A stretch of 64,000 nucleotides of DNA from Janthinobacterium saanense (GTDB lineage Bacteria > Pseudomonadota > Gammaproteobacteria > Burkholderiales > Burkholderiaceae_D), in NCBI RefSeq assembly GCF_014200675.1, contig NZ_JACHCI010000002.1, positions 186,001-250,000 on the forward strand, read 5' to 3'. Made by a program: the position numbers and the translations under genes. This document shows, one piece after another, positions 2,869 to 40,487 of the stretch. The stretch's first letter is position 1. The number at the start of each line of letters is the position of its first letter. Under the pieces are notes generated by a model. That model was not told the origin of the DNA. It did not search any database and saw only the letters and a list, made by a program, of their open reading frames with translations.

Positions 2869-4047
2869 TCAATGCGCCAGGTTCTGCGCAATAATGTTAT
2901 CCGCCATTTTCACCGCCTCATCCACCGGCTGGCTCAAGGCCTTGGTGCTGTACACGGTGGACGCCACCATCGGTTGATCCAGGGTTGCGCCTTCGCCATG
3001 GCTGGTGTCGACCGTGACGGTGGTCGACAGGCCGATGCGCAGCGGGTGGGCGGCCAGTTCTTGCGGGTCGAGCGCGATGCGCACCGGCACGCGCTGCACC
3101 ACCTTGATCCAGTTGCCGGTGGCGTTTTGCGCCGGCAGCAGGGAAAACGCGCTGCCCGTACCGGCCGACATGCCTTGCACCTTGCCGTGGTACACCACCT
3201 TGCTGCCATACAGGTCGGTCTCGATGGTGGCGGCCTGGCCCACGCGGATATTGCGCAATTCCGATTCCTTGAAGTTGGCGTCGACCCATAATTGATCCAG
3301 CGGCACGATGGACATCAGCGGCGTGCCTGGCGTGACGTGGCTGCCCAGCTGCACATTGCGCTTGGCCACATAACCGGAAACTGGCGCGATCACCGCGTTG
3401 CGGCGCACGGACAGCCAGGCTTGCACCAGGTCATCCTTGGCCGACAGCACGGCCGGGTGGCTGGCCAGCAGCACGCCCGCCACGCCGGCGCGCATGGAAT
3501 CGGCCTGGCGCTGGGCTACCGTCAAGGCGGCCCTGGCGTCATCCACAGCTTGTTTTGCATGCGCCAGGTCTTCACCGGAAATCGTGTGATCGGCCGCCAA
3601 AGGGGCGCGGCGGGCCAGGTTGCCTTGCGCCGTGGCCAGGGCCAGGCGGCGCTGTTCGACCACCGCGTCGTATTGCGCCACGCCCGTATAGCGTTCGCGT
3701 TCCTGGCGCACTACATTGCCCAAACGTGCTTGCGCCTGGCTCAAGGCCAGGTCGGCGTCGATACCGTCCAGTGTGATCAGGGGTGCGCCCGCCTGCACCA
3801 TCTGCGTTTCGTCGGCGCGGATTTCATTGACGTTGCCCGTGACTTGCGACGACAGGGTGACCAGGTTGCCGCCCACGTAGGCGTTGTCGGTCTGCTCTTC
3901 CTTCGACAGCACCAGCTTGTAGTAGCCGGCCCAGCCGATGCCCGCCAGCACGAACAGGGCTGTGATACCCAGCAAGACTTTCTTGCGCTTGTTGTTGCCT
4001 TCGATAGGCGTGTCGGAAGCTGTATTTGTATTGTTATCGTTGCTCAT
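2869..4047 (-). CDS. emrA: EmrA-type HlyD-family efflux adaptor
   Basis: Periplasmic membrane-fusion protein of 392 residues linking an inner-membrane pump to the outer-membrane channel. A short cytoplasmic N-terminus is followed by one membrane segment (about residues 24-46, LLGITALFVLAGIGWAGYY). Next come a biotinyl-lipoyl half (NAYVGGNLVTLSSQVTGNV), an alpha-helical hairpin (about 90-210), the second lipoyl half (VIAPVSGYVAKRNVQLGSHV) and a beta-barrel. It is the last gene of the marR-emrB-outer membrane factor-emrA operon and starts 24 nt after the channel gene. Substrates are unknown; the family exports hydrophobic drugs and uncouplers. Confidence 0.9.
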   Translation of the reverse strand: MSNDNNTNTASDTPIEGNNKRKKVLLGITALFVLAGIGWAGYYKLVLSKEEQTDNAYVGGNLVTLSSQVTGNVNEIRADETQMVQAGAPLITLDGIDADLALSQAQARLGNVVRQERERYTGVAQYDAVVEQRRLALATAQGNLARRAPLAADHTISGEDLAHAKQAVDDARAALTVAQRQADSMRAGVAGVLLASHPAVLSAKDDLVQAWLSVRRNAVIAPVSGYVAKRNVQLGSHVTPGTPLMSIVPLDQLWVDANFKESELRNIRVGQAATIETDLYGSKVVYHGKVQGMSAGTGSAFSLLPAQNATGNWIKVVQRVPVRIALDPQELAAHPLRIGLSTTVTVDTSHGEGATLDQPMVASTVYSTKALSQPVDEAVKMADNIIAQNLAH

Positions 4048-4071
4048 GATGAGTTCTCTAGTGTGCGATGT

Positions 4072-5547
4072 TTAGTGTGTAGCCGTGGAAGTTGTGACAG
4101 TTGCTGCCGTGCTGGTGTCCGGAAAATCGCTGGCGCCGCGGTAGCCGCCACCCAGAGCCAGGTTCAGGCTGATTTCCGCGTTTTGCCGCTGCTGCTGCAA
4201 TTGCATCAACAGGTCTTGCTGGAAGCGCACGGTCATTTCCGCACTGAGCTGCGTGGCGCGGTCGGCCAGACCCTGTTTCAGGCGGGCATTGGCGTTGCGC
4301 AATTGTTTTTCGCTGGTGCGCATGTTGTCATCTTGCAGGCGCAACTGGCTTTCCACGCCCTGCAATTTGGCGCCGGCCTGGGCCACGTCACGCACCACAT
4401 TGAAGACGCTCTGGTTGTAATCGGCGATCAGCTCGTTGCGCTCCGTGCGCGCGCCACCCAGTTGGGCCTGTAGCCGGCCCGCATCGAACAGCGGCAAGGA
4501 CAGCGCCGGGCCGATAAACAGGGTGCGGCTACCAGACTCCAGCAGCTTGCCCAGTTTTACGGCATCGAGGCCAAACGAAGCACCCAGGTCGATATCGGGA
4601 TAAAACGCGGCCTTGGCCGCATCGATGCGGCTTAACGATGCCTGCACGCGCCAGCGGGCCGCTTGCAAGTCGGGCCGGCGCGCCAGCAATTCCATGCCCA
4701 GCTTGCCCGGCATGGCGTGTGGCAAGGCGAGGGCCGTGCGCGGCTGCAAGTTGGCCAGCGCGGTGCTGTCGGCGCCCAGCAGGGCGCGTATGGCTTCGCG
4801 CTCGGTGATGATCTGCGTTTCCAGCAAGGCGATTTGCTGCTGTATCAGACTCAAACGGGTTTGCGCCGACAGGTGTTCGTCATTCACGCCCAGGCCATTG
4901 GCGATGCGCTTTTCCTTGTCGACTACCAGGTCTTGCTGCAGTTGCACCAGCGCATGCAGATTATCCATGCGCGCCCAGTTGGTCTGGATGCTGAAATAGT
5001 GCTTGGCGATTTCGGCTGCCAGCATCTGTTCCGACATGGCGAATTCGGCGCGGCGCGCATTGACTTCGCCCAGGGCCGAAGCGATTTGCGCCTTGTGCTT
5101 GCCCCACCAGTCGAGGTCGTAATGGGCTTGTACGCCCACTGTTTCTTCCGAGTAGTAGCTGCCGCCTATGGGGGCGGGGAACAGGCCATTGCCCGAATAA
5201 CGCTGGCGGTTGGCATTGGCGCTCAGGCTGACATTGGCGTCGCGGTCGGCGTGCTGGTAATCGAACGCGGCCTGGGCCGAGTTGATGCGCGCATTGGCCA
5301 CATCCAGGCTGGGGCTGGCAGCCAAGGCCTGGCTGATCAAGCCGTCCAGCTGATCGTCCTGGAACTGGCGCCACCACTGGGCGGCCGGCCAGCCTTCGCT
5401 GGCCAGGTGGATGTCGGCCGCCAGTTGCACCGTGGCCAGGTCTTGCTGCGGCAACACGAGCGTGTCGGGCGGAATGCTGGCGCAGCCGGCTAATGCCAAG
5501 CTAAAGGCCATTACGGTCAGGGAAAGTTTCATCGTTTTCTTATGCAT
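4072..5547 (-). CDS. Outer-membrane efflux channel lipoprotein (NodT/OprM type)
   Basis: TolC-like outer membrane factor, 491 residues. The start ATG at 5547 (MHKKTMKLSLTVMAFSLALA) has GGAG 8 nt upstream and gives a signal peptide ending in the lipobox ALAGC, so the protein is lipid-anchored. Two OEP repeats follow, with family-typical segments such as LVVDKEKRIANGLGVNDEHLS, LLARRPDLQAARWRVQASLS and GGYRGASD-like C-terminal sequence. It sits between emrB (stop 5 nt upstream of its start) and emrA, so the operon encodes a complete tripartite pump. An upstream in-frame extension to 5646 would remove the signal peptide from the N-terminus and is rejected. Confidence 0.88.
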   Translation of the reverse strand: MHKKTMKLSLTVMAFSLALAGCASIPPDTLVLPQQDLATVQLAADIHLASEGWPAAQWWRQFQDDQLDGLISQALAASPSLDVANARINSAQAAFDYQHADRDANVSLSANANRQRYSGNGLFPAPIGGSYYSEETVGVQAHYDLDWWGKHKAQIASALGEVNARRAEFAMSEQMLAAEIAKHYFSIQTNWARMDNLHALVQLQQDLVVDKEKRIANGLGVNDEHLSAQTRLSLIQQQIALLETQIITEREAIRALLGADSTALANLQPRTALALPHAMPGKLGMELLARRPDLQAARWRVQASLSRIDAAKAAFYPDIDLGASFGLDAVKLGKLLESGSRTLFIGPALSLPLFDAGRLQAQLGGARTERNELIADYNQSVFNVVRDVAQAGAKLQGVESQLRLQDDNMRTSEKQLRNANARLKQGLADRATQLSAEMTVRFQQDLLMQLQQQRQNAEISLNLALGGGYRGASDFPDTSTAATVTTSTATH

Positions 5548-8538: not shown

Positions 8539-9372
8539 TTATGCAATATCTATCAATGCGCGGTGAATTCGCTCAAGAAGATGCCGGAAGTGCATATGAT
8601 CCGCCTTCTCATCACATCGCATCATTAGTTCTTCAGCATCACGCATCAGTACATGCAATTGTTCAGCCCTTTCAGGGGCAGAAACGCGTTTTGATGCCTG
8701 AATTTTGTCAAGTGTATTAAGAATTCGCTCGTACTCGACTGCGGAAATGGATCCTTTGCGGCCACCACGATTTCTGTCGTACATGGAAAGCTCCATAAGC
8801 TTTCTCATCTCTTGCATTTCTGCTCGGAGCACTCCAAGCGCTAAGCCTTCTTTGTCACCCTTAAGCTCCGGAATTTTCGCAGATTGACTTAGTGCGAGAA
8901 GCTTAACGATTGAGTTGACATTGCCGGCTTCTCCGCTAGCCGTAACGGTTGCTTCAATAGCATCCTTTAGCTCGCGTTGATTTTTAAGTACGTCGTGATA
9001 CTTCATGTCCTTTGAGTACTCAAGATAACGAAGCGGCGCTATATCAAAAATCTTAGGGGTTCCAATTTCCTGGATCAGAACGACAGGCCTATCAAACGCC
9101 TGTCTGATACCAAGTTCAAATAGAACATTTGGATTTCGGCTGCTTAGATCGCATATGGCAACTGGCGCTTCAATAAGCTTTTTGAGAATGTCCAGATGAA
9201 TAAGATTTGTAGCCTTGACATCATCAGCTCTGACCGCGTTATAGCCAGACATATCACATGCGGGGGCCACGATGTTGTCGTAGACATGCTTAAAATGCCC
9301 CTGTGGATAGCCTTCCGTATCCGCTATTGGCATGATGATGAAGCAATCTTTACTTTTCGCCGCGTCCGTCAT
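8539..9372 (-). CDS. TIR/nucleoside 2-deoxyribosyltransferase-like protein (candidate defence effector)
   Basis: Protein of 277 residues. Its N-terminal half carries the CF(I/V)IMP-type fold: CFIIMPI at 10-16, HFKHVYDNIVAPAC at about 26-39, RADDV at 48-52 and DLSSRNPNVLFELGIRQA at 75-92. Glu86 (NPNVLFELG) matches the catalytic Glu of the deoxyribosyltransferase/TIR-like superfamily. These domains cleave N-glycosidic bonds (nucleosides, possibly NAD). The C-terminal half is mostly charged helix of unknown role. The gene stands alone, is poorer in GC than the core genes and is flanked by degenerate sequence, which suggests horizontal transfer. A stand-alone defence or stress role is inference; the exact substrate is unknown. 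Confidence 0.7.
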   Translation of the reverse strand: MTDAAKSKDCFIIMPIADTEGYPQGHFKHVYDNIVAPACDMSGYNAVRADDVKATNLIHLDILKKLIEAPVAICDLSSRNPNVLFELGIRQAFDRPVVLIQEIGTPKIFDIAPLRYLEYSKDMKYHDVLKNQRELKDAIEATVTASGEAGNVNSIVKLLALSQSAKIPELKGDKEGLALGVLRAEMQEMRKLMELSMYDRNRGGRKGSISAVEYERILNTLDKIQASKRVSAPERAEQLHVLMRDAEELMMRCDEKADHMHFRHLLERIHRALIDIA

Positions 9373-13089: not shown

Positions 13090-14003
13090 GGGCGAGCCTC
13101 ACCAGCATCCATGCCCAGCATCTGGCGTATTACCGGCAAGATCATTTTCCAGGCATTCGACGTGGCGGCGATTTCATCGTAATGGCTGGCGCCTGGCAAG
13201 ATCAGCACTTCCGCCTGGTCGCCGGCCAGTTTGGCCTTGGCCGCATAGTCGTGGGCGACTCTCGGCGGGGAGATGGTGTCCAGTTCCCCGCTAGCGAGCA
13301 CGGTGCGGCTGCCGTTGGGCATCAGATTGGCCGCGTTGGTGTCGCTGTAGATGTCAGGGCGCTCGCTGCTGGCGCTGCCTGCCAGTTGCACCATTTCACG
13401 GTCGCAACTGCTCCTGATCAAGTCTTGTTCATGGCGCAGGTCGGCCAGGCCGCCCAGGCTGATGATGTTGTTGACGGGCAGGAAGTTGTCGCGGTACAGC
13501 GGGCTGGTTTTCGGCAACTTGGCGCGGCCGGCGATCCATTGCACCAGTTGCCCGCCGGCCGAATGGCCCATGGCCACGATACGGCTGGTATCGAGCTGAT
13601 ATTGCGTCGCATGGTTTTGCAGGCTGTCGAGCGCCGCATGCATATCCTGGTAAGTGCCGGGATACCCGCCACCGGCTTCATCGACGCGCCGATACTCCAC
13701 GTTCCACACGGCAATGCCTTGCGCAGCCAGCGCGCCGGCCACGTTATGCATTTGCGTGATGCCACCGAACTCCACCGTCCAGCAGCCGCCATGCACCAGC
13801 ACCACCACCGGAAACGGCCCCGCACCAGTCGGGCGGAACAGCTGGGCGTATTGCGAGGGCGCCGCGCCATAAGGGATTTGCACCGTCGGCTCGGGGCCAT
13901 GCAGGGCCAGATAATCATTGAGGCTCATGGGAGCGGCAACGGCGCCGTGGATGGAGGCGAGCAGGGCGGTGGCGATCAGGGAGTGAGACAGACTGTGGGG
14001 CAT
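13086..14003 (-). CDS. Secreted alpha/beta hydrolase (carboxylesterase/BD-FAE-like)
   Basis: Exported serine hydrolase of 305 residues. A signal peptide (LIATALLASIHGAVA) is followed by a fold with HGG in the oxyanion-hole loop (VVVLVHGGCW), nucleophile elbow GHSAGG, an acidic residue in ASGELD and the catalytic His in GASHYDE. The pattern fits lipase/esterase and peptidase S9-like enzymes acting on short esters; the natural substrate is unknown. The start at 14003 is chosen because it places the signal peptide at the N-terminus; an upstream extension to 14120 would bury it. The gene is coupled to the downstream secreted protein gene by an ATGA overlap. Confidence 0.8.
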   Translation of the reverse strand: MPHSLSHSLIATALLASIHGAVAAPMSLNDYLALHGPEPTVQIPYGAAPSQYAQLFRPTGAGPFPVVVLVHGGCWTVEFGGITQMHNVAGALAAQGIAVWNVEYRRVDEAGGGYPGTYQDMHAALDSLQNHATQYQLDTSRIVAMGHSAGGQLVQWIAGRAKLPKTSPLYRDNFLPVNNIISLGGLADLRHEQDLIRSSCDREMVQLAGSASSERPDIYSDTNAANLMPNGSRTVLASGELDTISPPRVAHDYAAKAKLAGDQAEVLILPGASHYDEIAATSNAWKMILPVIRQMLGMDAGEARP

Positions 14004-14118
14004 GGCATTCACACTTGTTGTTGGGGCAATTTCCCACTCTAGCATAGCCAGGGCCATCCCTGAAGCCTGCCCATTCCGGTGAGAGTTTTCACGCGCCTGG
14101 GCGATGAAAGCGGCAATC

Positions 14119-14132
14119 AATAAATATTTATT
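14119..14132. promoter_or_regulatory. AT palindrome upstream of the Zorya-like locus
   Basis: AATAAATATTTATT is a perfect 14-bp palindrome in the AT-rich 224-bp gap between the divergent hydrolase gene and zorA. It could be part of a promoter or regulator site. There is no direct evidence for binding. Confidence 0.2.
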
Positions 14133-14227
14133 GTGAAAACAATTTCCTGACGGCTAATTTCGTTAGTGATAAAATAAAAGGTTATTTTTATTAAAAGTCA
14201 TTTAATTGACTACGGCATCAGACGTTG

Positions 14228-15591
14228 ATGTTTCTGATTGCTGTTTTTCATGGGATTACAATGCGTTTTTTGTTACTGCTTTTCTTTACCAGTTTTCCAT
14301 CCTTCGCTTACGCAAGTACGGGCTTTGCCTCGATGTTTGATGAGCCAATAACGCCGATATTTATTGGAATTAATATTTTATTGACGATTTGGTTTGCTGG
14401 TTATCGCTTCAATCGTTTTGCCGTCCAACATGGACCAGAAGTGTTGACAACCGTCGGTATTCTTGGGTGCTTCCTGGGAATTGCAGTTGCCCTCATGGGA
14501 TTTGATACATCGAATGTCTCATCAAGTGTTCCGGAGCTGTTAAAAGGCGTGAAGACGGCATTCTGGGCGTCACTCAGTGGTGTTGCCGGATCGCTGGTTA
14601 TCCGTTTTGTGGTGTTGCCGGATCGCTGGTTATCCGTTTTCGTCATCATCAACAGAAAATCCCTATAGCGCCAAGTCCTGGTGCGGCCCATGTGGCAGGC
14701 ATGGGTGATGTTGTTTCAGCTGTTCAGGCGTTGCAGAAAAGTCTGGCAGGATCAGAGGAGGGAAGTTTATTAACCCAAATGAAGCTCATGCGTCAGGAAC
14801 AGGCAGATCAGTTAGGCGGGCTGCGGGCATCGTTCGATACATTTGCCAGCAAAATGGCGGAAGACGGTTCCAAAGCGTTGATTGAGGCTTTAAAGGAAGT
14901 GATCGGCGACTTTAATACTCAAATCAATGAGCAGTTTGGCGAAAACTTTAAACATTTAAATGCCGCAGTGGGGGAATTAGTCGTCTGGCAGCAGCAATAT
15001 CGCGTGGAGCTCGATCAGATGCAGACCGTGCAGCGTTCGGCTGCTGACGATTTGCGTATCGCCGCTGGCAGTTTGTCTGCCATGACGGAACGGGCCGGTG
15101 CATTCACTGATGCTGCGGCGAGTATGGAGTCGATATTGCGTGGACTGGCCCAGCAATCGGTGATTATTGAACAGTCCCAGCGTTCATTATCCACTGTGTT
15201 GATGGAAATGAAAGATGTCGCGCCCCAGTTTGCTCAGAAATTAGATGAGCTCGCATCGAGCATGCAGCGTGGTGTAGCGAAAGTGCAAGCGGATGTGAGC
15301 GACGTGGTACGCAATTTTGGTACCCAGGTACAAAGTTCGTCCGCCGAGATGAAACAGCTTTTGGCTGAAACCTTGAAAAAGTCACAGAAGGAGGTCAATG
15401 ATGAGCTTTCGAAAGGACTGGATGTGGTACGCCAGAGTGTTATCACGCTGGACAAGGGCTTGCAGGAAGAGCTGACGAAAAGTCTGGAATTGCTGGGACG
15501 ACAACTTGCTTCCTTGTCGGAGAAATTTGTCAGTGACTACACGCCGCTGACTGAGCGTTTGCGTGACGTCGTGCAAATGGCGGCGAGGTGA
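14228..15591 (+). pseudogene. zorA: ZorA (MotA/ExbB-like) of a Zorya type II-like system, interrupted by a 32-bp tandem duplication
   Basis: The first piece (to the TAG at 14668) has a hydrophobic N-terminus, further membrane segments and the MotA/ExbB core: GPEVLTTVGILGCFLGIAVA and LLKGVKTAFWASLSGVAGSL. The second frame (open to 15591) is a long helical tail ending in SLELLGRQLASLSEKFVSDY. Removing one copy of the perfect 32-bp duplication at 14577-14640 joins both frames as GVAGSLVIRFRHHQQKIP and gives a protein of about 440 residues. ZorA forms the proton-channel stator and cytoplasmic tail that senses phage infection. As written, the gene yields a truncated protein. Start choice is unclear: ATG 14228 or ATG 14261. 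Confidence 0.75.
14577..14640. repeat. Perfect 32-bp tandem duplication inside zorA
   Basis: Two identical, adjacent 32-nt units (14577-14608 and 14609-14640, each starting GTGGTGTTGCCGGATCGCTG). Thirty-two is not a multiple of three, so the extra unit shifts zorA out of frame and creates a stop at 14666-14668. Loss of one unit by slippage or recombination would restore the gene exactly. Confidence 0.95.
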
Positions 15592-15597
15592 TAAATC

Positions 15598-16296
15598 ATG
15601 GAAAACGAAGAAAGTAACCAGTCATACTGGATTCCGCTGGCGGACTTGATGACCGGGCTGATGATGATATTCATGCTGCTGACGGCCGCCTTCATGTTGC
15701 GGGTGGAGCAGACCACTACCCTGGTGGTGAAGGAATACGAAGATACCAAGAATGACATGCTGCAGGCGCTGCAGAAGGAATTCGCCCAGGACTTGAAGCA
15801 ATGGAATGCCGAGTTGCTGGGCGATATGACCATACGCTTTAATGATCCTACCGTGTTGTTTGCCACCGGTTCAGCACAGCTGAGGCCTCAGTTCAAGCAG
15901 ATACTCGCTACTTTCTTTCCGCGGTATATCGCGTTGCTGACCTCGGAGCGCTATAAGGCTGCTGTCAAGGAAGTACGTATCGAGGGGCATACCAGTCTTG
16001 ACTGGACCAAGGAAACGGATGTGAAAACCGCGTATTTTCTCAATATGGGACTATCGCAGGAAAGAACGCGCAGTGCGCTGGAGTATCTGTTGAGTCTCCC
16101 TGCCGTGTCGAATGATCAGGATTGGCTGATACAACATGTGACTGCGAATGGTTTGTCATCATCGCGGCCTATAGCGCCCGGTAAACAATCTGCTGCCGCC
16201 CAACTGGCAAATCAGCGGGTGGAATTTCGTATCGTCACCAATGCCAGCGATCGCATGGATCAGATTGCGCATGATCTCAAGGCGGGCTCATCTTGA
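15598..16296 (+). CDS. zorB: ZorB (MotB/OmpA-like) of a Zorya type II-like system
   Basis: Protein of 232 residues. A short cytoplasmic N-terminus is followed by one membrane helix with the MotB-type aspartate (WIPLADLMTGLMMIFMLL, Asp16), then a charged coil. The periplasmic OmpA-like domain contains VLFATGSAQLRPQFKQIL, VRIEGHTS, LSQERTRSALEYLLSL and ANQRVEFRI. ZorB dimers sit inside a ZorA pentamer, bind peptidoglycan and use proton flow. GAGGTGA lies just before the ATG, and the gene follows zorA by 6 nt. The frame is intact, but it probably has no partner while zorA is out of frame. Confidence 0.82.
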   Translation: MENEESNQSYWIPLADLMTGLMMIFMLLTAAFMLRVEQTTTLVVKEYEDTKNDMLQALQKEFAQDLKQWNAELLGDMTIRFNDPTVLFATGSAQLRPQFKQILATFFPRYIALLTSERYKAAVKEVRIEGHTSLDWTKETDVKTAYFLNMGLSQERTRSALEYLLSLPAVSNDQDWLIQHVTANGLSSSRPIAPGKQSAAAQLANQRVEFRIVTNASDRMDQIAHDLKAGSS

Positions 16297-17132
16297 AGTT
16301 ACCTAACTTTCTGGATTGGCCCTTGCTCAATAATCTGCGCCATCACATGGCGGCGCCCTTGGCCGAGGCTTTTGGACGCCAGCATCGTATGAAAGAAATC
16401 GAACTGCCCGTCGTCACGCGATTGCAGGAAAATGGTATCGACGTGGGCCTGGAAGAGATACAAATTCTTTCAGATAAGACGCTTGCCTATCGTGGTCACC
16501 GCGTGCTGTTATATATCCGTGATGTTAGCAACTATGGCGGAAAGCAGGAGTTGCCTAAATTTCACCTGACGTTTTGTAAGACGCTCGACGGCATGCGTCA
16601 AAAACGGCGTTTTGAGCGCTATGTGGTGGCGAATCGCGATGATGGTCATTTTCAGGTGAATCTCATTGGCCAACCGGTTGTTTCCAAGATGGCGATGCTC
16701 AATGTCTGCCAGCTTTGTCTGGTCCACATACGCTGGCAAGATTTTCATATGGGCTTGGCGCAAGACGTGCGCTTAGGGCGAGTCCGGCAGTTTGAATTAA
16801 AGGCATTTTTTAAAACTTACCCCAAAGATCTCAACGCAGTGAGGCCGGCACATACATCGGACACGGCCCCATTGAATGATTATCCGGCGGATTGGCAAGA
16901 TATCGCTTTGGCGGTCAAGAAAAATCGTGGGTATTCGTGTAATAAATGCAGGGTGAACCTGAACGGTGTAATGGCGCAGTATCTTCATTTGCATCATCGC
17001 AATGGGGTAAAGAGCGATAATGTTGACGAGAATCTCGAGCTGCTATGCATCCGCTGCCATGCTGAGGAACCCTTCCACGGCCATATGAAGAGCCTGCCGT
17101 CCTATCAGGAGTATATGCAGGCCCGTCATTAG
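16293..17132 (+). CDS. zorE: ZorE-like HNH nuclease of a Zorya type II-like system
   Basis: Protein of 279 residues with a unique N-terminal region and a C-terminal zinc-coordinated HNH domain: CNKC, then YLHLHHRNG, DENLELLCIRCHAEEPF. The two CxxC pairs bind zinc, and the HH and Asn residues form the betabeta-alpha-metal active site. Type II Zorya systems combine ZorA, ZorB and an HNH effector, ZorE, that attacks DNA. The TTG start overlaps the zorB stop as TTGA; an alternative is ATG 16348. The last base of its TAG is directly followed by the stop codon of the convergent monooxygenase fragment. GC content is below that of the core genes. Confidence 0.75.
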   Translation: MKLPNFLDWPLLNNLRHHMAAPLAEAFGRQHRMKEIELPVVTRLQENGIDVGLEEIQILSDKTLAYRGHRVLLYIRDVSNYGGKQELPKFHLTFCKTLDGMRQKRRFERYVVANRDDGHFQVNLIGQPVVSKMAMLNVCQLCLVHIRWQDFHMGLAQDVRLGRVRQFELKAFFKTYPKDLNAVRPAHTSDTAPLNDYPADWQDIALAVKKNRGYSCNKCRVNLNGVMAQYLHLHHRNGVKSDNVDENLELLCIRCHAEEPFHGHMKSLPSYQEYMQARH

Positions 17133-17514
17133 CTAAGCAAGTAAATTTCTGCTTAGCGGCAATCCACTGCCCCAGCCGCGCGCCATATCGGCCATGATTT
17201 GCCGCGTATCGGCCTGGCGCGCCTGTTCGTCGCGTTGCCGGCAGGCGTGTTTATCTGTGTTGAACAAGGCTTGCGCCACGGCGCGCGCCTGCAAGGTGAT
17301 CTGGCTTGTCTTGGTTTGCCGGCGGGCCGTGAACGCAGGCAAGGCTGTCTCCAGGTCACTTCCTTGCAGACACTGTTGCAGGCACTGCGCCAGGTGATAC
17401 GCATCTTCCAGTGCCTGGCAGGCGCCTTGGCCCGAGGTGGGCAGGGCGGCGTGGGCGGCATCGCCTACCAGCAAAACATTGCCGCAGTGCCAGCAATCGA
17501 CAGGATCGTGGTCA
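17133..17514 (-). pseudogene. C-terminal remnant of a FAD-dependent monooxygenase
   Basis: The frame encodes only the end of a FAD monooxygenase: HDPVDCWHCGNVLLVGDAAH, ALPTSGQGACQALEDAYHLA (the GD-box that binds FAD ribityl) and a C-terminal tail ending NLLA. The N-terminal Rossmann motif (GxGxxG) and substrate domain are missing. Upstream codons beyond about 17514 are antisense to a LysR remnant. The fragment cannot be a functional enzyme. Confidence 0.7.
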
Positions 17515-17687
17515 TGAATGGCGGCCTGGCGCAGGGCAATCTGGTGCATGTCAAGCTCGATCTTGACGCGATGCCGCTGGACGTGGTGGCTTGTTATCCC
17601 AGCCATCGCCACCTGGCGGCCAAGACGCGCGCCTTGCTGGCGCTGCTGCAACAGCGCTTGCCTGGGATGGTGAAGATGGCGGCCTGA
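17505..17687 (+). pseudogene. C-terminal remnant of a LysR-family regulator
   Basis: About 60 codons match the end of a LysR substrate-binding domain: GLAQGNLVHVKLDLDAMPLD, then VVACYPSHRHLAAKTRALLA and LLQQRLPG. The helix-turn-helix and most of the sensor domain are absent. Together with the opposing monooxygenase end, this is what remains of a divergent regulator/enzyme pair after an internal deletion. Confidence 0.6.
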
Positions 17688-38483: not shown

Positions 38484-38486
38484 ATG

Positions 38487-40487
38487 ATGAAAACGGAGCT
38501 CTTTACAGTATCAAAAATATTTCACGAATCACTCTTCCGCATTCCAGATTACCAACGTGGCTACTCTTGGGAGGAGCGTCATTTGAAAGATTTTTGGGCA
38601 GATTTGGAGCAGCTCGTCGAAGGAAAGAACCACTATACCGGTGTGTTAACTTTAGAAGCTGTACCTGCAACTATTTGGGAGAATTGGGTTGATGATAGGT
38701 GGATAATTGAATCGAGGAGATATGCGCCATACTATGTCGTTGATGGTCAACAACGTCTTACAACTATCACTATATTACTGCAATGTATATTGGAAATTTC
38801 CGGTGATGACGATTTAAATTTTACTCCTGCCGATTCTGTTGAGAAAAAATACATTTTTGATCATCGTGCAAAAAGTCACTCTAGAGCCTATATATTTGGA
38901 TATGAAAAAGACAATCCAAGTTATGAATATCTAAAAACAAAGATATTTGGTGAACCATCTGACCATCATTCCACAAACGAAGAAACAATTTACACAAGAA
39001 ATCTTTTAAATGCTAAAGATTTTTTCATAAAAAAATTAAAAGATATAAAGAAGTCAAGCCTAGAAGTTTTATATACAAAAATTTCTCAACAATTAGTTTT
39101 TAATGTATATGAAATAGCAAAAGAAATAGATGTATTTGTCGCATTTGAGACTATGAATAATCGAGGGAAGCCACTGTCAACTCTTGAGCTGCTGAAAAAT
39201 AGATTAATATATTTAGCAATGCAGATGCCTGATGCTGGTAATGGTGATGGAACAAGATTGAGGCGAGTTATTAATGATGCATGGAAAACTGTTTATCATA
39301 ATTTAGGGAAAAATGAAAGGCGACAACTTGCAGATGATGATTTTTTAAGAACTCATTTTTCATTATATTATCATTTATATGTAAGCCCAGAACTTCCTGT
39401 GGACGAAGATGAGAGTCAGCGATATATGTCAAAATATATGACGGTTATTGATAATACATCTAGCTTTTTATTGGGTAGATTATTTACAAGAAAAAGGCTC
39501 TCTGAGAGTCCGAATGATCCTCTTCCGAATATTACGTCTGAAACACTTCACGACTATGCTGCACACTTAAAATCTTCTGTAGAAATTTATTTTAAAATAA
39601 GCACTCCTGATAGAAGTGATTATTCAGAAAATGAGAAAATAATGCTCGAGCGCTTAGGGCGATTGCGGGGATATGGTGCAAGTCCTTTGTTGTTGACATT
39701 GTATGTTTTGGAAAAAAATTCGGCAAAACGTCATACTTTGCTTCATGCATTTGAGCGTTGGAACTTTTTAACATCCATGAAGTGGGGTGTTCAAAGAACC
39801 TTATATTTTAATCGCTATATAAATATTGAAGTTGTTAAATTCATGAAAGGCAAAGTAAAAATAGATCATTTGGTAACTTTTTACACAAACACTATCGATC
39901 AGATATTAAAAGAAGAATCTGTTGCTGATTCAATAAATAATTGGATAAAAAATGGGCCAGGATATTACGGATGGAGAAGCATTAACTATTTTTTATTTGA
40001 ATATGAACTTTCTTTAAAAGAAAAATCTAAATCTTCCAGATCAAAAATTGATTGGGATGCATTTTGTGCTGAAAATTTCCAAAGCGATTACTCGTCTATT
40101 GAGCATATATATCCTCAGAAAGCAAGATCTCCGTACTGGACTGAAAGGTTTGGGAGTTTTACACCTACTCAAAAACGTCTCCTAAGAAATTCTTTGGGTA
40201 ATTTACTTGCTCTTTCGGCTCCGAAAAATTCCAGCTTAGGTAATAAATCATTTCATGAGAAAATTGGAAGAGAAAGTGATACTGTTGGATATCGGTATGG
40301 TAGTTATTCAGAGAATGAAGTTGCTGCATATGCAGATTGGGGTGCGCCTGAGATTGTTGAGCGTGGAATTAAAATGTTAAGTTTTATGGAGTCAAAATGG
40401 GGATTTGTTATTGGTGATAATGAGCAAAAAATTAAAGCACTTGGACTTTCGTTTTTGCTGAGAAGTAATAAATTCAGTTCTCAATAA
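38487..40487 (+). CDS. DUF262-DUF1524 protein, GmrSD-like putative type IV restriction enzyme
   Basis: Protein of 666 residues. The N-terminal DUF262 (GmrS-like, ParB/Srx fold) shows IPDYQRGYSWE and VVDGQQRLTT near residues 86-93, the nucleotide-binding DGQQR motif. FETMNNRGKPLSTLELLKNR follows. The C-terminal DUF1524 (GmrD-like) carries an HNH-type motif SSIEHIYPQ with NSLGNLLALS and an Asn/Lys-rich end. Such enzymes cut modified phage DNA. GGAAG lies before two ATGs (38484, 38487); the second has better spacing. Base composition is far more AT-rich than the flanks, which indicates recent transfer. No partner methylase or regulator is present. Confidence 0.8.
   Translation: MKTELFTVSKIFHESLFRIPDYQRGYSWEERHLKDFWADLEQLVEGKNHYTGVLTLEAVPATIWENWVDDRWIIESRRYAPYYVVDGQQRLTTITILLQCILEISGDDDLNFTPADSVEKKYIFDHRAKSHSRAYIFGYEKDNPSYEYLKTKIFGEPSDHHSTNEETIYTRNLLNAKDFFIKKLKDIKKSSLEVLYTKISQQLVFNVYEIAKEIDVFVAFETMNNRGKPLSTLELLKNRLIYLAMQMPDAGNGDGTRLRRVINDAWKTVYHNLGKNERRQLADDDFLRTHFSLYYHLYVSPELPVDEDESQRYMSKYMTVIDNTSSFLLGRLFTRKRLSESPNDPLPNITSETLHDYAAHLKSSVEIYFKISTPDRSDYSENEKIMLERLGRLRGYGASPLLLTLYVLEKNSAKRHTLLHAFERWNFLTSMKWGVQRTLYFNRYINIEVVKFMKGKVKIDHLVTFYTNTIDQILKEESVADSINNWIKNGPGYYGWRSINYFLFEYELSLKEKSKSSRSKIDWDAFCAENFQSDYSSIEHIYPQKARSPYWTERFGSFTPTQKRLLRNSLGNLLALSAPKNSSLGNKSFHEKIGRESDTVGYRYGSYSENEVAAYADWGAPEIVERGIKMLSFMESKWGFVIGDNEQKIKALGLSFLLRSNKFSSQ

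What the first reader, a model, noticed from the sequence alone, without database searches (positions are those of the whole stretch)
14577..14640. Perfect 32-bp tandem duplication switches zorA out of frame
Two identical adjacent 32-nt units break the frame; dropping one rejoins both halves of ZorA perfectly. Both copies are still identical, so the event is recent. Such duplications revert by slippage, so the locus may act as an on/off switch for a costly defence system, or it may have been silenced in this strain during growth.
Basis: seen in the sequence. Interest (0 to 1): 0.85.

Follow-up and report, generated by a model that had tools for sequence, protein, structure and literature searches.

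The report
Zorya gene broken by short duplication
In this Janthinobacterium assembly an anti-phage defence gene carries a 32-letter stutter that breaks it; the break is probably a recent, ordinary loss of function, and nothing found here shows that it works as an on/off switch.

Summary
Bases 14577-14640 are two identical 32-nt units with no further shared base at the join. They lie in zorA of a type II Zorya operon (zorA-zorB-zorE, 14261-17132) in a Janthinobacterium genome. The frame closes at 14668, leaving a 135-aa membrane stub without the cytoplasmic tail that published work finds necessary for defence. Of 28 relative loci given to one check, 24 matched both parts of ZorA and all 24 keep them in one frame without a stop between (two rows are one genome). 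In ten close relatives the alignment opens one 32-nt gap there. The rest of the operon shows no lesion, so the break looks recent. It is the only perfect tandem unit above 15 nt in 464 kb sampled of this genome.

The switch reading is not supported: no relative shows the two-unit state, the single unit has no end homology to promote repeated duplication, and none of 60 listed E. coli zorA2 rows (of 526 genomes) has a net insertion. Best reading: recent strain-level loss of function, perhaps revertible. An assembly or culture artefact is not excluded. Bold origin kept as the novel case: damage by the operon's own nickase, sealed by end joining.

The parts
14577..14608 (+). first 32-nt unit; in the N-terminal frame it reads GVAGSLVIRF, the end of the membrane part of ZorA
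14609..14640 (+). second, identical 32-nt unit; a 32-nt gap stands here (placed at 14610-14641) in all 10 aligned relatives
14261..14668 (+). 5' part of zorA, ATG 14261 (earlier starts 14225 and 14228 possible); 135-aa product ending at TAG 14666-14668; keeps the MotA-like membrane part
14692..15591 (+). 3' part of zorA, the cytoplasmic tail (299 aa from GTG 14692, the first start codon of that frame after the stop at 14503); no good ribosome-binding site seen by eye
15598..16296 (+). zorB (MotB-like, OmpA-type domain), open
16293..17132 (+). zorE (HNH-type nuclease; a studied type II ZorE is a nickase), open
   Evidence: PMC11890865 passages
14109..14118 (+). AGCGGCAATC, left 10-bp direct repeat at the edge of the Zorya cassette
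17155..17164 (+). AGCGGCAATC, right copy; relative G031 has one copy and no cassette

Best explanation
A type II Zorya operon, probably acquired horizontally, sits in the chromosome of this Janthinobacterium, and its zorA was recently inactivated by one 32-bp tandem duplication at the boundary between the membrane motor part and the cytoplasmic tail. Shown: the duplication, the frame break, the otherwise open operon, the one-unit state in relatives, and the site without cassette in a near relative. Inferred: the ribosome stops at 14668 and leaves a tail-less 135-aa stub; the motor can no longer recruit ZorE, so standalone defence is off; zorB and zorE expression may also fall through polarity. 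The lesion is a chance loss-of-function allele at strain or colony level, possibly favoured because Zorya II can damage the host chromosome. A perfect tandem repeat can be lost again by slippage (general knowledge), so it is revertible in principle, but it is not an evolved switch.
For: Perfect 2.0-copy duplication. Frame analysis. PADLOC type II matches: ZorA2 on both halves (2.8e-38 and 1.1e-127), ZorB2 1.2e-90, ZorE2 3.7e-117. Of 28 relative rows given, both ZorA parts were found in 24, all 24 in one frame with no stop between; L004 and L038 are one genome, so 23 of 27 distinct loci. Window departs at 9 of 127, 5 of 143 and 2 of 74 columns invariant in 10 relatives (tail, ZorB, ZorE), against 15 of 133, 5 of 143 and 15 of 87 for the intact Janthinobacterium homologue L038 left out in the same way. 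The cytoplasmic extension of ZorA is required for defence in types I and II, and under native expression ZorE alone shows no DNA damage (PMC11890865, passages). No X-XXY-YYZ heptamer in the frame overlap.
Against: No reads, transcript or protein data, and no second strain of the species. Recency rests on identity over 32 bp and on absence of decay, which cannot date the event finely; the nine other relatives depart at fewer invariant columns than the window (0-6 tail, 0-4 ZorB) though not clearly for ZorE (0-4), which I put down to their nearer kin within the set. The tail frame could be translated separately from GTG 14692 or ATG 14701. A preprint reports one phage context where ZorE is used without ZorAB, given Druantia III (PMC13192584, passages), so 'defence off' may not be total.
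Confidence: 0.7

Rival explanations
1. Phase-variable switch: the strain flips between one and two units by slippage, turning Zorya on and off in part of the population.
For: A perfect tandem repeat with a unit not divisible by 3 in a coding region. Zorya II can damage host DNA (PMC11890865, passages), so an off state could pay. Tandem-repeat copy number is reported as phase-variable in another bacterium (PMC12817950, title and start of abstract in the listing only).
Against: The single unit has no end homology to promote duplication. 0 of 23 other distinct loci show two units. 0 of 60 listed E. coli rows show a net insertion, although that zorA2 is distant (31% identity over 62% of the tail). 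Under native expression host DNA stays intact without phage, so the standing cost may be small.
Confidence: 0.08
2. Assembly or sequencing artefact: the real genome has one unit and the second copy was made when sequences were joined.
For: Exactly 2.0 copies with no end homology is what an uncollapsed overlap would look like. It is the only such repeat in 464 kb, and the genome is a draft of 48 contigs.
Against: The site lies inside a 539-kb contig with no N in the window. 64 nt is shorter than common read lengths (general knowledge). No similar doubled join in the 464 kb sample.
Confidence: 0.12
3. Functional split: stub and tail are made as two proteins, or joined by ribosomal frameshifting, and still work.
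For: Tail frame is open from 14506, so a -1 slip anywhere up to 14668 would reach it; start codons at 14692 and 14701.
Against: No canonical slippery heptamer in the overlap (other slip sites not tested); none of the 24 relative rows with both parts has the arrangement; no clear ribosome-binding site before 14692 or 14701 (by eye); the five ZorA tails bundle below the motor (PMC11890865, abstract).
Confidence: 0.03

Closest known systems
Zorya type II (ZorA2-ZorB2-ZorE)
   Same: Gene order, MotA/MotB-like pair, HNH-type effector; best PADLOC matches are type II models; best solved-structure match of both ZorA parts is 8VVI, which I take to be the type II ZorA of PMC11890865 (accession list and length)
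   Different: zorA is interrupted; the proteins score below the NCBIfam cut-offs for these names
Loss of function by short tandem duplication (recalled kind)
   Same: Perfect unit not divisible by 3, the only lesion seen in the operon
   Different: No end homology at the junction, unlike duplications between short direct repeats (recalled)
Phase-variable defence genes (restriction-modification, BREX; recalled)
   Same: A repeat in a coding region sets the frame
   Different: Two units only, one genome only, no such repeat in relatives, no mixed population shown
E. coli zorA2 pseudogenes
   Same: zorA broken while zorB and zorE stay annotated as intact (GPEC464, SCPM-O-B-12142)
   Different: Lesions are a 1-nt deletion and an N-terminal loss next to an IS1 transposase

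Membership tests
Zorya type II operon | zorA, zorB, zorE adjacent in this order and matching type II models | tested here: met
Zorya type II operon | single open ZorA with membrane part plus long cytoplasmic tail | tested here: not met
   both parts present but in different frames; so filed as an inactivated type II Zorya locus
Zorya type II operon | ZorB with conserved membrane Asp segment (ADLMTG) and OmpA-like domain | tested here: met
   that this Asp carries the ion is from the literature, position equivalence not tested
Zorya type II operon | ZorE with HNH-type motif | tested here: met
   conserved C..C / LH.HH.NG / C..CHA columns kept and PADLOC ZorE2 match; the motif reading is mine, Pfam gave no match
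NCBIfam equivalogs ZorA2, ZorB2, ZorE | score above curated cut-off | tested here: not met
   ZorA pieces 50.6 and 86.0 of 700; ZorB 186.6 of 400; ZorE 144.2 of 600
Phase-variable (contingency) locus | more than one repeat state seen among isolates | tested here: inconclusive
   two-unit state in 0 of 23 other distinct loci, but no second strain of the species came up
Phase-variable (contingency) locus | repeat or end homology in the on state that promotes switching both ways | tested here: not met
   no extra homology at the junction
Phase-variable (contingency) locus | switching measured in a population | not testable with these tools
   needs reads or culture
Programmed -1 ribosomal frameshift | slippery X-XXY-YYZ heptamer in the frame overlap | tested here: not met
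   the only heptamer, at about 14266, lies outside the overlap 14506-14668

The most novel reading that the evidence does not exclude
Self-inflicted silencing: the operon's own nickase ZorE nicked the two strands about 32 nt apart inside zorA. The overhangs were filled in and the ends sealed by Ku/LigD, which leaves a tandem duplication without end homology and disarms the system that made it. Defence systems with nickase effectors would then carry a built-in mutagenic off route, revertible by slippage when phages return. Facts consistent with it: no end homology; Ku and an 846-aa open frame with an ATP-dependent ligase C-terminal domain, about 3.7 kb apart, in this genome; and a studied ZorE that makes single-strand breaks in host DNA (PMC11890865, passages). 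None of this shows that it happened.
Probability: 0.04. Interest if true: 0.75.

Novelty: new member of a known kind. Interest (0 to 1): 0.22.

Why it matters
As it stands it is one broken allele: a caution that strong profile matches to both halves of zorA do not mean an active Zorya system. If reads showed a mixed population, or if nickase-type defence operons carried duplications without end homology more often than other genes, it would make the cost and self-damage of Zorya II testable in natural genomes.

Tried and rejected
Switch reading: looked for a second copy state in relatives and found none. Frameshifting: no canonical slippery site. Hairpin: a CGGAT/ATCCG stem lies in each unit, but the region folds no better than shuffles as single-stranded DNA (z -0.07). 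Terminator-like scan of 14000-17300: 8 found against 4.0 (sd 2.2) expected; 4 of the 8 are 5-pair stems in the two units; not pursued. A 33-nt stretch 197 nt upstream (14391-14423) is 73% like part of the array, too weak to call a third unit. Burkholderia multivorans zorA without annotation looked like a possible pseudogene, but the record has only 3 annotated features and the two ZorA parts are in one frame without a stop. E. coli survey with a homologue from Escherichia sp. ESNIH1: no match; repeated with the E. coli zorA2.

Rows left out of the frame count: L018, L020, L021 (no tail match) and L048 (neither part matched). Not given to it: L006, L007 and L022-L037, weak profile matches; none of these matched either ZorA part at 1e-5. 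The check covers only the best-matching segments, partial in distant loci; one search shows one stop inside a further segment in the genomes of L011 (1 TGA) and L014 (1 TAG), not looked into.

Literature: I saw no paper on Zorya phase variation or a zorA frameshift switch in the listings (4 of 4; 13 of 13; 10 of 16 listed; passages of two opened, neither on this). Searches (20 of 99 listed; 20 of 39; 1; none; 5) gave nothing that I used on reversion of small duplications beyond the title of PMC12817950; (1 paper, on human cells) gave nothing on LigD. These cover open-licence PMC papers only.

Full report
What is there. Window bases 14577-14608 and 14609-14640 are identical. A scan for perfect tandem units of 8-400 nt over the window and 20 further stretches of the same genome (464 kb of 6.1 Mb) gives this as the only unit longer than 15 nt, with no matching base beyond two full copies. 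In 71 other fetched loci (353 kb, overlaps not removed) the only perfect tandem units of 14 nt or more are two of 33 nt in one locus, L032.

Which gene. Both sides match type II ZorA models (PADLOC PDLC00637, 2.8e-38 for the 5' part, 1.1e-127 for the 3' part), followed by ZorB2 (1.2e-90) and ZorE2 (3.7e-117). NCBIfam gives the same names, all below its curated cut-offs. The 5' part aligns to residues 10-90 and the 3' part to residues 127-323 and 319-376 of PDB chain 8VVI_F (378 aa). The paper models the type II (Sulfuricurvum) cytoplasmic extension as residues 110-378 (PMC11890865, figure legend; that 8VVI is this protein is my reading of its accession list and length). So the break falls at the passage from the membrane part to the tail. 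The frame closes at 14668, giving 135 aa from ATG 14261; the tail frame is open from 14506.

Host and locus. The genus is inferred: the same-genus genome G063 that carries the system has the hit on a contig of 114432 bases, the length of the Janthinobacterium sp. BJB426 contig in the named collection. Among 40 genus genomes (own included) strong ZorA2 matches occur in 2, the own one and G063; two more have weak matches. The nearest flank relative, G031 (92% DNA identity), has no cassette: its matches run to window 13985 and resume at 17155 with 70 bp between. A 10-bp word, AGCGGCAATC, stands at both cassette edges (14109 and 17155) and once in the G031 stretch. G+C is 0.42-0.53 over 14000-17000 and 0.58-0.66 to its right. 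This suggests acquisition in this lineage; loss in G031 was not tested against it.

Ancestral state. Of 11 hits in the named genome collection, ten carry zorA (L038-L047) and align with one 32-nt gap at the second unit; the eleventh, L048, has no zorA match on the held DNA and a zorE matched in two frames. Over 28 relative rows, both ZorA parts were found in 24, and all 24 are in one frame without a stop between. L004 and L038 are one genome, so 23 of 27 distinct loci.

Is it recent. At columns invariant in the ten relatives the window departs at 9 of 127 (tail), 5 of 143 (ZorB) and 2 of 74 (ZorE); the intact Janthinobacterium homologue L038, left out in the same way, departs at 15 of 133, 5 of 143 and 15 of 87; the other nine depart at 0-6, 0-4 and 0-4. 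The conserved motifs of ZorB and ZorE are kept. No other lesion was seen in the operon. Together with the identical copies this points to a recent event, but does not date it.

Effect. The cytoplasmic extension of ZorA is required for defence in types I and II; ZorE is a nickase; under native expression, DNA of Zorya II cells stays intact without phage, and ZorE-only cells show no detectable DNA targeting (PMC11890865, abstract and passages). The two-unit allele should therefore be off for standalone defence (inference). One preprint reports a ZorAB-independent use of ZorE with Druantia III (PMC13192584, passages); Druantia was not searched for here.

Switch or not. A single unit without end homology gives slippage no foothold to make the duplication again, so the path from on to off is not promoted by the sequence. 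No relative is in the two-unit state. In E. coli, 526 of 5,426 genomes carry a near match to E. coli zorA2. Of the 60 rows listed by even steps, 57 span exactly the query's 1653 nt and none spans more; one is a 1-nt frameshift, one a truncation beside IS1, both with zorB and zorE annotated as intact, and the third short row is an intact gene. That gene is distant (31% identity over 62% of the window's tail), so this is a weak control. A search for Zorya with phase variation gave four papers, none with either term in title or abstract (listing only).

Origin. Absence of end homology argues against the usual duplication between short direct repeats (recalled). Ku (6.5e-47, G000:C19:108337-108891) and an 846-aa open frame with an ATP-dependent ligase C-terminal domain (2.8e-29, G000:C19:112604-112885) are present, so end joining is available; the LigD reading is inferred from that domain and its nearness to Ku. 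A pair of opposed nicks, filled in and joined, would give this product, and ZorE is of a nickase family, but this is speculation and is scored as the novel case.

Limits. No reads, no second strain of the species, one draft assembly of 48 contigs. An artefact is the main unremoved rival.

Noticed in passing
window 17133-17651 (-): Scar of a deletion of about 1.66 kb relative to G031 (L090): the end of an FAD-dependent monooxygenase gene abuts the end of an oppositely oriented LysR-type regulator gene, with a 3-nt overlap of the match coordinates at the joint (17535-17537) (LysR naming is my reading of the L090 translation).
   Followed up: partly
window 14109-14118 and 17155-17164: 10-bp direct repeats at the edges of the Zorya cassette, single in the G031 stretch without the cassette; may mark the insertion event.
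   Followed up: partly
window 38484-40487 (+): 667-aa protein matching PADLOC HEC-06, Orf5 and SspE models (best 8e-43), a possible DUF262-type defence protein (domain name recalled).
   Followed up: no
window 8539-9372 (-): 277-aa protein with a weak TIR-effector match (2.2e-07) in PADLOC and no Pfam match.
   Followed up: no
L048 (Paraburkholderia franconis) 4001-5344: Remnant Zorya II: ZorB matched only from residue 59, no zorA match on the held DNA, zorE matched in two frames.
   Followed up: partly
L041 zorA (Paraburkholderia saeva): ZorA tail match is longer than in the other close relatives (tblastn alignment length 362 against 296-298; ORF 500 aa), an in-frame tail-length variant.
   Followed up: no
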